64,000 nt of DNA from Stenopsyche tienmushanensis (lineage: Eukaryota > Arthropoda > Insecta > Trichoptera > Stenopsychidae), in the NCBI GenBank assembly GCA_008973525.1, contig WACJ01000095.1:310001-374000 (forward strand), in the 5' to 3' direction. How positions within the stretch are numbered: the first letter of the stretch is position 1; every line of letters starts with the position of its first letter. The position numbers and the translations under genes are program-made. The notes under the pieces were generated by a model. The model made no database searches, was not told the origin of the DNA, and saw nothing but the letters and a program-made list of their open reading frames with translations. Of the stretch, positions 17,930-23,256 are shown in pieces.

Positions 17930-17935
17930 TTTATT
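17930..17935 (-). terminator. Polyadenylation signal of peptide gene 1
   Basis: AATAAA on the minus strand, 127 bases after the stop codon of the upstream seven-cysteine peptide gene. It is the first good signal in its 3' region. Confidence 0.5.
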
Positions 17936-18062
17936 AAAATGTTTAATTACAATTCCAATCGATGATTTTAACTACTTATAAACTATGTACAAATCTAAAT
18001 TACGAGAACATAGATGTGTTGGTGTGAGATTTTCTAGTGGCAACGAGCATCATGGAGTCCCC

Positions 18063-19549
18063 TTATTTCCATCCGCAGTAAGTCGAGCACCAGCACATGG
18101 GGTGGGTCCATTCTGGCCAGCAGATCTTCAACCATCTGAAGAAGCATCTGCACTTGGGGATCCACCAGTATTTTTGGCAAAAGCTGTAGCTACGCGCATA
18201 GGGGAAGCTCGAGTCCAAAGCTTTCGCTTCCATGGACGATGTCAATTCCGTATTTTCACCAGGTGGTGCGATGCCATAGAGGTCGAACCATTTTGGATTT
18301 TCGGAACTGTCCGATTCCAGCGAGGTTGAGTTCACCTGGAATTCAAAAAAAAAAAAAATAATTCAATAATAAAAAAGAAAAATAAATCCGTGGCATATGG
18401 TGTAAATCCTGACGCCGACAAAACCACCGCAATTTAAAAAGGGTAAGGCTCACAAAGTGAGCGCTTTAAATCGAGCCCAAAACTGTTAAAATTACAAAGA
18501 GTGCAAAAAATCCACGAAAAGGTCTATTATCAGGATGGATTGGGATGCATTTGCATTTTACATAGTTTCAAGCATGTACTCGAATAATGAAGCATTTCAT
18601 ACAAGTTATACTGCGTCAGAGGGTTTAAATTATCCATTCTATGAAAAATACGGTCATGGGTTTTGATTAATTTTTTTTAGATATTCAATATTTTTGCAGA
18701 ATGTCTCACTGTATATTTATAGTAAAGCTTATTAACTTATAGAAATAAATTGATTTTACGTATTGCTTCCATTTGTTAACGACAATTGTTAGCTAAAATA
18801 TGAAGCTGTGTGTTGTGTAATATATAATAAAATAGGCTTGTTACTGGTCTAGCGGTTGCTTTATGCTATGCACTTACACATAGTATGCGCATGCGCCGCG
18901 CACGTCTATATAATGTATGCGACGGACACAGACACAGTATCTAATCGTCGTTATCCGGTTTATGTTAAATCTGAAGAATGTTATATTTAAGATTGAAGTT
19001 AAATCTTGTAGATAAAAAATTTAATAGAAATTTTTAATAAAAACTCTCAGGAGCAAACATTGATTTATTTGCTTTGACAAGGATGATGTATGGTTTAGAA
19101 GCATCTGGGATGGATGTTAAAGTGAATCGTAGCATATTGCTTATGAATAAATATTTCTTATGATCAGGCTTATAATATCCACACGAGAATAAAGAATGCT
19201 TTAAAGTCATGTTGGTTTTTAATTGGATCTTTTAATATATTTTATTGATGAAGAGCAAAAAAAATATGGTCAAGGGATGAAATTTAAATCCATCGGATGA
19301 AAATCCATTAATTGACGAGGCACCCATTCTATCCCAAGTCCACCGTCGAACATTGAATTCGTTACGATATCGGGATTCGGGCTCGTTATCGATTCTGAGG
19401 CACGTTCCTGAAAGTTTGGTTTTTTTTACAAATTCATTACGGCCGAAACTTTGTCCTTCTTCAAGCAAAGTTGTGTGGGGATTTGTGTGTATTTTGGAGT
19501 GACTTACAAGAAGGAAGCAGCCGAAGAGTAGGAAGACGAACTTCAACAT
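18063..19549 (-). CDS. Secreted seven-cysteine peptide, gene 1 (two exons)
   Basis: The coding sequence joins exon 1 (19549 down to 19508, 42 bases) to exon 2 (18335 down to 18063), giving 104 residues. Exon 1 encodes MLKFVFLLFGCFLL, a signal-peptide core, and ends at donor GTAAGT. Exon 2 begins after a T-rich tract and TTCCAG, in phase 0, continuing VNSTSLES. Cleavage near residue 17 is likely. Residues 18-57 are a polar, Ser/Glu-rich spacer. FPY lies at 58-60. The C-terminal domain has Cys 67, 76, 78, 86, 95, 97 and 101 (C-x8-C-x-C-x7-C-x8-C-x-C-x3-C) and many Trp. The signal peptide and cysteines suggest a secreted, disulfide-bonded peptide. Its function is unknown and I do not recognise the family. 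Its closest relative is the gene 3.2 kb upstream, in the same orientation, with the same exon plan. The long plus-strand frame across exon 2 is a shadow. Confidence 0.8.
18336..19507 (-). other. Intron of peptide gene 1
   Basis: This phase-0 intron of 1172 bases is bounded by GTAAGT and CAG with a poly-T tract before the acceptor. It lies at exactly the same codon boundary (after codon 14) as the 71-base intron of gene 2. It carries a copy of repeat B, so part of its extra length comes from an inserted repeat. Confidence 0.75.
18775..18960 (+). repeat. Dispersed repeat B, copy 2 (inside gene 1 intron)
   Basis: It carries GAAGCTGTGTGTTGTGTAAT, ATATAATAAAATAGGCTTG, TTACTGGTCTAGCGGTTGCT and TTATGCTATG, followed by a CpG-rich tail GCGCATGCGCCGCGCAC. 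It matches copies at 20.3 and 35.7 kb. Confidence 0.7.
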
Positions 19550-19584
19550 GGTGATCGGTTCACCTGAATCACTCGCCAAGGAAA

Positions 19585-19618
19585 ACTGAAATATGAAATA
19601 AAGATGGCGGTTTTTATA
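19585..19618 (-). promoter_or_regulatory. Core promoter of peptide gene 1
   Basis: TATAAAAA occupies 19618-19611 on the minus strand, and the arthropod initiator TCAGT occupies 19589-19585. Taking the initiator A (19587) as +1 puts the TATA start at -31 and gives a 38-base 5' UTR before the ATG. The sequence after the initiator, TCAGTTTTCCTT, nearly matches that of gene 2. Confidence 0.7.
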
Positions 19619-20275
19619 TTGTCATTGATCGTAATTAAAGCGATCGTATTGATGCATATTTTACGACGTGTCAATATTGAAGGTGGATGTAAATACGCTG
19701 AGTCAACAAACGCTGGTCCATCAATCAAAATGGGAACAAAACACATGTGGAGGAACTCGGGAGCAGTTGAGCAATCATAATATTATTTATTGCTTCTGCG
19801 ACTTTTTATTAAATAAAACACAGGATCAAATATTATGTAATCAAACAATGGTTGATACAGAGGTTGATGGGATACAGAGTGATATGATTTAATTTATTAC
19901 TTTTGAGCTATTATAATCGATTTGCTGACTGCAAATATGGCAGAGTTTATTGGCATTACAGATTTGCATATTTTTGGGTTATTTATTGGGTCATCAATTG
20001 AAAAACGTCGGTAAAACGTATTTGATATGACTATAATATGATCCTGAAGAGAATACAAATTTGTTTTAAAAATTGGAATATTATACGGAGAACAGACAGA
20101 CATACATTCAGCTGTATATTTTGATAAACAGTCCACATAATCATATCGTATCGCTTGTTTTTTCTGAGAGCATACACCATGAGTTATTAGTGAAAATTTA
20201 GCATTTATAATGAGATTTATATTATTTGTAATTCACTGCTTTAAAGAAGAAATCCTAGAAAAAGGTTTTCTTAAA
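19619..20275. other. Spacer between peptide gene 1 and repeat B
   Basis: It holds the upstream region of gene 1. No further coding exon or repeat was recognised. Confidence 0.4.
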
Positions 20276-20415
20276 CATAAAGCTGTGTTTGTGTAATATA
20301 TAATAAAATAAGTACGTTACTGGTATAGCGGTTGCTTTATGATATATATAGACATACAAAGTAGAGGCGGCGTGGCGCATGCGCGTAGCGTTTCTATCAT
20401 GTAAGCAACAGAGGC
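20276..20415 (+). repeat. Dispersed repeat B, copy 3
   Basis: It carries AAAGCTGTGTTTGTGTAATA, TATAATAAAATAAG and TTACTGGTATAGCGGTTGCT, then GGCGCATGCGCGTAGCG. It lies in the spacer between the two peptide genes, in the same orientation as the intronic copy. It is followed by a CTCTCTCTCTCT run at about 20432. Confidence 0.7.
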
Positions 20416-21652: not shown

Positions 21653-22629
21653 AGCGCGTGAGTGTTTGTTATTTAGTATTTTTTTAAAAACAATAACCGT
21701 CCTCTATACGTCAGATTGGGTACTCTTGGGACTATCTTCGTATATTATTTTAAAATATTTGTAATGATAATATTTAATTCTATTGAGACGATTGATAAAG
21801 TCGGGCAGGGCTATCTATAAACGATTGATTTGTAATAATCATTGAAATATCATTTAAGAAATTAAGGCTAATTTCATTAATTATTTTTAGGGCTTCTCAC
21901 ATCTAAAGTTTTTGATTCAAATTATGTAAAATCTTTTCTCCAGATCCATTTAAATTTAATATTTATAATAAGGAGAGTCCAGGAACTAGCTTTGTATACC
22001 AGCACTTGAACAAATATTAAACGCCTGTCAGGAAATATATTTATTTCCGCGTTAGTTGATGTTCCGCGCGAATTATATTAAGGCACATAAATTTTCGAGA
22101 AACTCAAGTTTTAAGCCACTGTTATAAATTTAAAAAAATGAATTGTAAACTACGTTACGCATTGTACAAACTCATAAATAACCCACTGAGAACACTTGTT
22201 TTTGTCATCATTTTCCACAAGCTACGCATGGTTCATAAGAATTTTGCTATTGTATCCAATAAGATTCGGGTATGCGAATATGAAGCATTTTGAAGAGTTC
22301 CATGACACTGGCGTCTTTTGTTGTCTAGAGACGCTTTGATTCGGCAATAAAAGATTCCTCGAATGCTGCGATTTGAGAAACACTGATTGAGACTACTTCA
22401 GATTTATCAATAAGATTGCTATTTTGTGTACCCAACCGTGAAATAAGAAACATATTATGTGTTTTTGGTGATTCTAAAGTAATATATGGGAGCAATGTTG
22501 AATTCATTGCATGCTTGTCTCCCAATTTATTGTTTGTAATTGATATCAGATAGAGATTGCAGGTATACGGCGTACAAGTCATGCCATCTTGTTCATACAT
22601 ATATCACAGCATACACTCGATAAATAAAT
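21653..22629. other. No gene supported
   Basis: A 91-codon minus-strand frame (22600-22325, beginning MYEQDGMTCTPYTCNLYLIS) lies here. No family was recognised and no splice partner was found, so it is not called. The rest is AT-rich. Confidence 0.35.
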
Positions 22630-22652
22630 AGATACAAATTTGTATAACAATT

Positions 22653-22658
22653 TTTATT
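22653..22658 (-). terminator. Polyadenylation signal of peptide gene 2
   Basis: AATAAA on the minus strand, about 135 bases after the gene 2 stop codon. An earlier AATAAA lies near 22777, very close to the stop. Either could be used. Confidence 0.4.
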
Positions 22659-22793
22659 GCATCAGGGTTTATAAACTACTTAAAAATAAATAAAATATTT
22701 ATGCGTTGCTATATTTGAGTGCATTATTTATAGAAATGTGCTGAAAAATAATTTAGTTGATTAGGAATTGGTTTATTTAGTCATGGCGATGGT

Positions 22794-23188
22794 TTACCAC
22801 CATCTGCACCATGCGCTGCATGGACACATTTCATGTTGTTGTTCAACTGGTTTACCCCAGCAGTAGACGAGCCAATTGAAGAAGCATTTGCATCTCGATG
22901 CGAAAGGTTTCTTGATGCAAAATACCAATTGTTTCTTGTAAGGGAACCCATCAAGCCCCAAGAATGCTTGAACATTGGATGGTGGTCCACCGGGACCAGC
23001 AGCTTCCGTGTATTTGCCATATGTCACCAAGGTTTCATCCGAGACCATTTCTTCAGAGGCCAAGCTCAACTGGATCTTTAAAATGAGACTCAAAATTATA
23101 CTCAATGTAAAATATTAAACATGTCATAACGAGGTGGATTTCTTACGCAGAAGAATGCCGCGAGCAGGAAGAAGAAGAATTTCGACAT
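22794..23188 (-). CDS. Secreted seven-cysteine peptide, gene 2 (two exons)
   Basis: Exon 1 (23188 down to 23147) encodes MSKFFFFLLAAFFC and ends at donor GTAAGA. Exon 2 (23075 down to 22794) starts IQLSLASEE in phase 0. The product is 107 residues. The signal peptide probably ends near Ser21. The spacer is acidic and then Gly/Pro-rich (AAGPGGPPSN). FPY lies at 58-60. Cysteines are at 67, 76, 78, 86, 98, 100 and 104 (C-x8-C-x-C-x7-C-x11-C-x-C-x3-C). The CFFxWLxxCW core and a CxCSxxCxW end match gene 1, and only the fourth loop differs, by three residues. The odd cysteine count leaves one free or in a dimer bond. A secreted role is likely. The exact function is unknown. Confidence 0.82.
23076..23146 (-). 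other. Intron of peptide gene 2
   Basis: This short phase-0 intron of 71 bases has donor GTAAGA and acceptor TTTTAAAG. A second in-frame acceptor ATCCAG ends six bases downstream and would remove two residues (Ile-Gln). Using the first acceptor keeps the cysteine numbering identical to gene 1. Confidence 0.7.
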
Positions 23189-23223
23189 GGCGGCGTCTTT
23201 GATGGATACTTAAGTCAAGAAAA

Positions 23224-23256
23224 ACTGACAAACTGGTAATATTGCTTGCCTTTATA
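23224..23256 (-). promoter_or_regulatory. Core promoter of peptide gene 2
   Basis: TATAAA occupies 23256-23251 on the minus strand. The TCAGT initiator occupies 23228-23224 with +1 at 23226, so TATA starts at -30 and the 5' UTR is 38 bases, as in gene 1. The initiator context TCAGTTTTTCTT is nearly that of gene 1. Confidence 0.7.

What the first reader, a model, noticed from the sequence alone, without database searches (positions are those of the whole stretch)
17930..23256. Tandem pair of spliced genes for an unrecognised seven-cysteine secreted peptide family
Seen in the sequence: two minus-strand genes, each with a 14-codon signal exon, a phase-0 intron after codon 14, and a second exon ending in a Cys-rich domain. 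FPY (58-60), F66 and Cys 67/76/78/86 fall at identical residue numbers in both proteins, and the CFFxWLxxCW core and CxCSxxCxW end are shared. The spacers and most other residues differ. Inferred: a local duplication with fast divergence of the mature peptide, as seen in salivary effector, venom or defence peptide families. The pattern does not match the defensins, knottins or bicycle (CYC) proteins I know, so it may be undescribed.
Basis: partly seen in the sequence, partly recalled or inferred. Interest (0 to 1): 0.88.

Follow-up and report, generated by a model that had tools for sequence, protein, structure and literature searches.

The report
Seven-cysteine peptides in silk-type genes
The genome of what is likely the caddisfly Stenopsyche tienmushanensis holds three related genes, two of them side by side, for predicted secreted seven-cysteine peptides that match nothing in the databases searched; they share the short-first-exon layout of the silk gene H-fibroin and are therefore likely made in the silk gland.

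Summary
Genes A and B each have a 14-codon signal exon, a phase-0 intron and a second exon ending in C-x8-C-x-C-x7-C-x(8,11)-C-x-C-x3-C. A third gene (C) with the same structure lies on another contig; genome searches listed no fourth. All three have TATA, then TCAGTTTT 28-29 bp on, just before the signal exon. No relative turned up in the libraries searched. The genome is very probably Stenopsyche tienmushanensis (Trichoptera), whose published H-fibroin breaks at the same place: 14 codons, phase 0, short intron. My best reading is a small silk-gland (labial-gland) protein whose +6 domain likely binds anionic silk; tissue and function are untested. 'Fast divergence of the mature peptide' is not supported: silent sites are saturated and the cysteine domain is the conserved part; B is closer to C than to its neighbour A. 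New detail: gene A's long intron holds a second in-frame candidate terminal exon (19407-19270) with its own stop and AATAAA, so A may make two unrelated peptides from one signal exon. No transcript data were available.

The parts
18063..18335 (-). Gene A, exon 2b: c-region of signal, acidic spacer (43 aa up to FPY, net -6), seven-Cys domain (47 aa, net +6), stop
   Evidence: acceptor tttgaattccag, pyrimidine fraction 0.82
19508..19549 (-). Gene A, exon 1: 14-codon signal exon, donor gtaagt
19270..19407 (-). Candidate alternative terminal exon 2a of gene A: phase 0, 45 codons without Cys, stop TGA
   Evidence: single copy in the genome; weak pyrimidine tract (0.35)
19241..19246 (-). AATAAA just after the stop of exon 2a
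17930..17935 (-). AATAAA downstream of gene A exon 2b
19613..19618 (-). Gene A TATA box
19582..19589 (-). Gene A initiator-like TCAGTTTT, 29 bp after the TATA start
19669..19680 (-). TCAATATTGACA, shared with gene C at nearly the same distance (62 and 61 bp) upstream of TATA
22794..23075 (-). Gene B, exon 2: c-region of signal, acidic spacer (43 aa up to FPY, net -5), seven-Cys domain (50 aa, net +6), stop
23147..23188 (-). Gene B, exon 1: 14-codon signal exon, donor gtaaga
23251..23256 (-). Gene B TATA box
23221..23228 (-). Gene B initiator-like TCAGTTTT, 28 bp after the TATA start
22772..22777 (-). AATAAA of gene B (a second one at 22658-22653)
18721..18940 (.). Dispersed genomic repeat inside gene A's long intron (40 other matches listed, a lower bound; one of the 40 is at window 20270-20345)

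Best explanation
Three two-exon genes (A and B in the window, C on another contig) of what is likely the net-spinning caddisfly Stenopsyche tienmushanensis encode predicted secreted peptides with a conserved, basic, tryptophan-rich seven-cysteine domain, which would be made in the larval labial (silk) gland and likely bind and cross-link the underwater silk. SHOWN by sequence: the shared gene layout (TATA, TCAGTTTT, a 14-codon start exon with a phase-0 donor, one second exon); three paralogues; a conserved C-terminal domain beside a poorly conserved acidic spacer; net charge +6 in all three domains. SHOWN in print for this species: H-fibroin also breaks after codon 14 in phase 0. INFERRED: secretion by signal peptide; silk-gland expression (from the shared layout); oxidation of six cysteines into a small helical domain, leaving one of the seven free for an intermolecular disulfide; and attraction of the +6 domain to H-fibroin, which is extensively phosphorylated on serine and so anionic. 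INFERRED for A alone: exon 1 may be spliced either to exon 2a (no cysteine) or to exon 2b (seven cysteines).
For: Family and structure. Same core promoter in A, B and C: TATA-to-TCAGTTTT 29, 28 and 29 bp; 4 such sites in 588,000 strand-bases, 3 of them these genes (the motif was chosen after looking at the three genes). Organism: 451,459,302 bases against a published 451.5 Mb for S. tienmushanensis (PMC6302954, passages); best match of a neighbouring TEL2 ORF, and the only named one of the 4 proteins returned, is from the caddisfly Arctopsyche grandis, 59%. H-fibroin intron at positions 43-124, between residues 14 and 15 (PMC6302954, H-fibroin section read), against 14 codons, phase 0 and introns of 71 bp (B) and 78 bp (C). 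[quoted passage not shown] Net +6 in 3 of 3 domains; spacers -6, -5, -3. H-fibroin phosphorylation: PMC6302954.
Against: No expression or proteome data. A short signal exon with a phase-0 intron is not unique to silk genes: some wasp antimicrobial-peptide genes have phase-0 introns near the N-terminus (PMC2853521, passages). The second exon lacks silk repeats. In the same paper the second H-fibroin gene has its intron inside codon 14, not after it. Gene A's intron is 1172 bp, unlike H-fibroin, B and C. Keeping net +6 is only mildly unusual (random redraws of the variable sites give it in 14-22%). I could not read H-fibroin's own promoter here (empty; the later query did not complete). The 27 silk candidates reported for P. 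conspersa (PMC9432349, passages and one section) do not, in what I read, include such a peptide. Folding gave low confidence (mean pLDDT 54.8 and 55.8).
Confidence: 0.38

Rival explanations
1. Host-defence (antimicrobial) peptides: a signal peptide, an acidic segment that keeps the product quiet, and a cationic, Trp- and Cys-rich domain likely to act on microbial membranes, secreted into haemolymph, gut or onto silk.
For: Acidic spacer and +6 domain in 3 of 3 genes, 5-7 Trp per domain. Wasp and bee antimicrobial-peptide precursors with acidic propeptides and phase-0 introns are described (PMC2853521, passages).
Against: No kappaB consensus (GGGRNWYYCC) in the 300 bp upstream of any of the three genes; a looser form occurs 1, 3 and 1 times, not above background (P 0.34). 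No dibasic site shared between spacer and domain; predicted helices are not more amphipathic than shuffles. No Pfam or NCBIfam family.
Confidence: 0.27
2. Salivary or venom-like peptides acting on prey, food or a host.
For: Small secreted Cys-rich paralogues; labial glands are salivary glands in many insects (recalled).
Against: No burst of copies: 3 found in 451 Mb; the mature domain is the conserved part; the organism is very probably a silk-spinning caddisfly.
Confidence: 0.1
3. Another secretory role: cuticle or eggshell component, protease inhibitor, or hormone-like peptide in a tissue not considered above.
For: Nothing in sequence fixes the tissue; no family match.
Against: Shares its 5' layout with a silk gene of what is very probably the same genome.
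Confidence: 0.2
4. Exon 1 of A belongs only to exon 2a, and the Cys exon 2b has lost its signal exon (a gene on its way to decay). This concerns gene A alone and is independent of the readings above.
For: Intron to 2a is 100 bp, close to B (71) and C (78), against 1172 bp to 2b; 2a has phase 0, a stop and AATAAA; no other signal exon was found for 2b.
Against: Exon 2b is intact, keeps 7 Cys and 22 of 47 domain residues across saturated silent sites, and has the stronger acceptor (pyrimidine fraction 0.82 against 0.35). The long intron holds an inserted repeat.
Confidence: 0.15

Closest known systems
H-fibroin (FibH) gene of Stenopsyche tienmushanensis (PMC6302954)
   Same: First coding exon of 14 codons, phase-0 short intron (82 bp against 71 and 78), everything else in later exon sequence; very probably the same genome.
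   Different: No long Gly/Ser repeats, 104-112 aa instead of about 350 kDa, Cys-rich domain instead. Compared with the published section and legend only; the gene itself was not located here.
Caddisfly pseudofibroins (Pfibs, PMC9432349, passages and section 3.3)
   Same: Two exons, very short first exon carrying part of the signal peptide; two of them adjacent; charged and Cys-containing.
   Different: [quoted passage not shown] these peptides do not.
Two novel small silk proteins of Stenopsyche marmorata (Smsp2, Smsp4), known here only from mentions in PMC9432349
   Same: Same genus (inferred), small (167 and 132 aa given there for two novel proteins), not detected in P. conspersa.
   Different: Recalled as GYD- and GW-rich repeat proteins; sequences not compared here, original paper not read.
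Insect antimicrobial-peptide precursors with acidic propeptide and phase-0 intron (navitripenicin, hymenoptaecin; PMC2853521, passages)
   Same: Signal, acidic segment, cationic C-terminal part, phase-0 intron.
   Different: Different products (glycine-rich); here no conserved dibasic site and no kappaB match.
Bicycle gall effectors of aphids (PMC9168663 passages; PMC13041983 abstract)
   Same: Secreted, two C-x-C pairs per protein.
   Different: No CYC, two exons instead of many small phase-2 exons, different insect order.
Pea aphid cassette effectors KQY/KHI (PMC7495047, abstract and one section)
   Same: One signal cassette joined to different coding parts, with isoforms by alternative splicing, as proposed for gene A.
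   Different: Many miniature exons; sequences not compared.

Membership tests
H-fibroin | Short first exon ending after codon 14 in phase 0 | tested here: met
   against PMC6302954
H-fibroin | Long repetitive second exon (GGX, SXSXSX, GPGX) | tested here: not met
   Exon 2 is 90-98 codons without such repeats
H-fibroin | Same promoter as the species' own FibH | not tested
   FibH was not located (empty; unanswered)
[quoted passage not shown]
   PMC9432349
[quoted passage not shown]
   Sequences
Silk protein (any) | Present in spun silk or silk-gland transcripts | not testable with these tools
   No transcript or proteome data held
Insect antimicrobial peptide | Acidic segment followed by cationic domain | tested here: met
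   -6/-5/-3 and +6/+6/+6
Insect antimicrobial peptide | Conserved processing site between the two | tested here: not met
   No shared basic pair
Insect antimicrobial peptide | kappaB-type site upstream | tested here: not met
   GGGRNWYYCC 0 in 300 bp for 3 of 3 genes; looser form not above background
Defensin, knottin or other curated family | Match to a curated profile or solved structure's sequence | tested here: not met
   Pfam: exon 2 of A and B, 0 families; NCBIfam: A, B, C and exon 2a, 0 families; PDB 0
Bicycle proteins | CYC motif and many small phase-2 exons | tested here: not met
   C-x-C pairs are CKC/CPC (B), CRC/CWC (A), CRC/CSC (C); two exons, phase 0
Bicycle proteins | Saposin-like fold | tested here: inconclusive
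   Helical but low-confidence models; 0 Foldseek matches in the PDB for the model of A, model of B not searched

The most novel reading that the evidence does not exclude
A new class of small underwater-silk proteins: the H-fibroin gene layout reused for a seven-cysteine, +6, Trp-rich module that docks on phosphorylated silk and cross-links it through its odd cysteine, with gene A switching one signal exon between a Cys-free and a seven-Cys product by alternative terminal exons.
Probability: 0.2. Interest if true: 0.75.

Novelty: new variant of a known kind. Interest (0 to 1): 0.5.

Why it matters
Caddisfly silk sticks and holds under water, and the sequences of most caddisfly silk genes are described as largely unknown (PMC9432349, passage). 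If these peptides are silk-gland products they would add a disulfide-rich, cationic partner for phosphorylated fibroin. They would also suggest that a fixed 5' layout (TATA, TCAGTTTT, 14-codon signal exon, phase-0 intron) can be used to look for further unannotated silk-gland genes. If they are instead antimicrobial, they are a new cysteine scaffold. Either way they are short, two-exon genes of a sort that annotation can easily miss.

Tried and rejected
Fast divergence of the mature peptide: rejected. Recent tandem duplication: rejected, because B is closer to C than to A. More copies nearby: none in 194 kb of C95 or 100 kb of C529; beyond A, B and C the best tblastn hit was 15 residues at E 0.12, and two other signal-like exons on C529 had no Cys domain. 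A regulon marked by TCAATATTGACA upstream of TATA: the genome search listed 19 matches against 2 in the reversed control. Of the 19 rows, 3 are one site on C42, 2 are gene C (both orientations) and 1 is gene A. I fetched 4 others (L038-L041): none showed a signal exon with a donor just after the TATA, by eye and by an ATG scan, and 3 of the 4 share a longer stretch like a repeat; the other rows were not fetched. I therefore do not count the excess as evidence for a regulon. A fourth TATA-TCAGTTTT site at C95:309489 has no such exon that I could see. Motif counts in the 300 bp upstream: forkhead type P 0.056, GATA P 0.08 (all 6 in C), E-box P 0.03 (palindrome counted twice, uncorrected for seven motifs); none used. 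Sequence kinship of exon 2a with exon 2 of A, B or C: none (432, 315 and 650 of 2000 shuffles score as high). Amphipathic helices: not beyond shuffles. Fold search with the model of A: 0 matches. Bombyx FibH N-terminal query in this genome: nothing, uninformative without a control. Telomere repeat in the 43 loci fetched by then: none, uninformative. Rfam and tRNA scans of the window: none.
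Full report
WHAT IS THERE. Gene B (minus strand): TATA at 23256, TCAGTTTT at 23228, ATG at 23188, 14 codons to 23147 (gtaaga), 71-bp intron, exon 2 from 23075 to the stop ending at 22794, AATAAA at 22777. Gene A: TATA at 19618, TCAGTTTT at 19589, ATG at 19549, 14 codons to 19508 (gtaagt), 1172-bp intron, exon 2b from 18335 to the stop ending at 18063, AATAAA at 17935. 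The precursors are 104 (A) and 107 (B) residues.

A THIRD COPY. Searching the whole genome with exon 2 of B, and then of A, gave three places each at E up to 10: A, B and C529:990,064-990,309, with no stop inside. The latter, gene C, has ATG-14 codons-gtaagt (a second ATG lies one codon upstream), a 78-bp intron, phase 0, and the same domain. No further copy appeared in 194 kb around A/B or 100 kb around C. The genome search scores only the candidates of a first look, and A scores only 1.7e-7 against C, so more distant members could be missed.

CONSERVATION. Over exon 2, 25 columns are the same in all three. From FPY to the end, identity is 22 of 47 (A-B), 22 of 47 (A-C) and 30 of 50 (B-C). 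Before FPY, A is not detectably related to B or C (1395 and 374 of 2000 shuffles reach the score), while B and C are (0 of 2000). Synonymous distance in the domain could not be computed in 3 of 3 pairs (saturated under NG86; the two other methods failed), and third-position identity is 0.40, 0.38 and 0.56 against 0.53-0.74 at first and second positions. So the domain is the constrained part and the duplications are old. This is the opposite of the fast-evolving mature peptide that the finding proposed.

CHEMISTRY. Charges up to FPY are -6, -5 and -3; domain charges are +6, +6 and +6; the domains hold 7, 5 and 5 Trp and always 7 Cys in the order C-x8-C-x-C-x7-C-x(8 or 11)-C-x-C-x3-C (A, B, C). 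In redraws of the 20 variable B/C sites, +6 arises in 14-22% of cases, so the constant charge is suggestive only. AlphaFold2 on two-sequence alignments gave low mean pLDDT (54.8 for B, 55.8 for A), but in both models helices at residues 47-55 and 60-72/73 of exon 2 and a short one between 82 and 89. Foldseek on the A model found nothing in the PDB.

PROMOTER. A, B and C each have TATA followed 28-29 bp later by TCAGTTTT, which begins 40 bp (A, B) or 56 bp (C) before the ATG. In 588,000 strand-bases of both contigs, TATA[A/T]A-N(19-25)-TCAGTTTT occurs 4 times; 3 are these genes and the fourth, at C95:309,489, shows no signal exon. The motif was picked after seeing the three genes, so the count describes its rarity and is not a blind test. 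A and C also share TCAATATTGACA 62 and 61 bp upstream of TATA. That this 12-mer marks a wider set of genes is not supported by the four other places fetched.

WHOSE GENOME. The assembly holds 451,459,302 bases in 549 contigs. An ORF 22 kb outside the window (C95:285,404-288,385) is a TEL2 homologue. Of 7993 candidates scored (more existed), 4 proteins came back; the best and only named one is from the caddisfly Arctopsyche grandis, 59% identical; the unnamed ones are 56, 44 and 43% identical. The published Stenopsyche tienmushanensis assembly is 451.5 Mb with contig N50 1.29 Mb (PMC6302954, passages). A mitochondrial contig holds cox1 (Pfam match), with frames that I recognise by eye as nad2, cox2 and atp6 beside it.

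WHY SILK. In that paper the H-fibroin intron lies at positions 43-124, between residues 14 and 15: 14 codons, phase 0, 82 bp, as in B (71 bp) and C (78 bp). The second H-fibroin gene of the same paper has its intron inside codon 14, so the match is to the first. Pseudofibroin silk genes of Plectrocnemia conspersa all have two exons, the first very short and coding for part of the signal peptide (PMC9432349), and a 2025 paper calls a short first exon typical of pseudofibroins or cadhezins (PMC11906653, passages). The 14-codon first exon of Bombyx FibH and its TCAGTT start are recalled, not checked here. The layout also fits some wasp antimicrobial-peptide genes with phase-0 introns (PMC2853521, passages), so it is a lead to the tissue, not proof.

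MECHANISM PROPOSED. Shown: gene layout, family, conserved domain, charges. Inferred: signal cleavage somewhere near residues 17-24 (a -3/-1 rule scan only), synthesis in silk gland, folding with three disulfides and one free cysteine, docking of the +6 domain on phosphorylated, anionic H-fibroin, and cross-linking in the spun fibre. Confidence 0.38. The antimicrobial rival has the acidic/cationic layout in its favour and the missing kappaB and processing sites against it.

GENE A'S SECOND TERMINAL EXON. Between A's exon 1 and its Cys exon lies an in-frame candidate exon (19407-19270): phase 0, 45 codons, stop, AATAAA beginning 24 bases after the stop. Of 2648 YAG sites on both strands of the window, 3 are followed by at least 45 open codons, AATAAA within 40 bases of the stop, and GC of at least 0.44: this exon, gene B's own exon 2 (entered two codons late), and one at 10045 (+) not known to be a gene. 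The cut-offs were set after seeing this exon. Against it: a weak pyrimidine tract (0.35; with a tract of 0.45 required it drops out, leaving 2 of 1768 sites) and no relative anywhere in the genome. Exon 2b's survival argues that exon 1 still reaches it, so both splices are plausible; only RNA can tell.

NOVELTY. No match in Pfam (A, B), NCBIfam (A, B, C, exon 2a), PDB sequences, or 5.8 billion proteins with B alone (1 candidate) and with the three-sequence alignment (11 candidates). Viral contigs gave 130 and prokaryote genomes 209 pattern matches with the A/B alignment, none confirmed as a relative. The protein collection does hold at least one caddisfly, but unannotated small genes would be absent from it, its search needs shared five-residue words, and no other insect genome could be searched as DNA. 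In the lists of 8-15 papers shown by searches (most had more papers than were listed), no title or abstract start described such a family; I read no supplements.

Noticed in passing
window 60835-63234 (-): Long open frame with a reverse transcriptase domain (RVT_1), a LINE-type element; a weak RT-like piece (below Pfam's cut-off) at 4019-4399 (+).
   Followed up: no
window 30446-30856 (+) and 50362-50979 (+): Pieces of mariner-type transposase (Transposase_1 match for 50668-50976; the others by similarity to it, by eye).
   Followed up: no
window 18721-18940: Dispersed repeat with 40 other matches listed in the genome (a lower bound), lying in gene A's intron; one of the 40 is at window 20270-20345.
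   Followed up: partly
G000:C95:285404-288385: TEL2 homologue, used here to place the genome near caddisflies.
   Followed up: partly
G000:C509: 10.9-kb mitochondrial contig with cox1 (Pfam) and, by eye, nad2, cox2 and atp6; read with the invertebrate mitochondrial code.
   Followed up: partly
L038:15-81, L039:11-82, L040:9-78: Three places on different contigs share TCAATATTGACAT followed by a similar 20-30 bases and, further on, TATA; looks like a repeat family.
   Followed up: partly
L024:9451-9489 (-): TATA-TCAGTTTT site (C95:309489) in a stretch with many CCGGTTTT-like words, no gene seen.
   Followed up: partly
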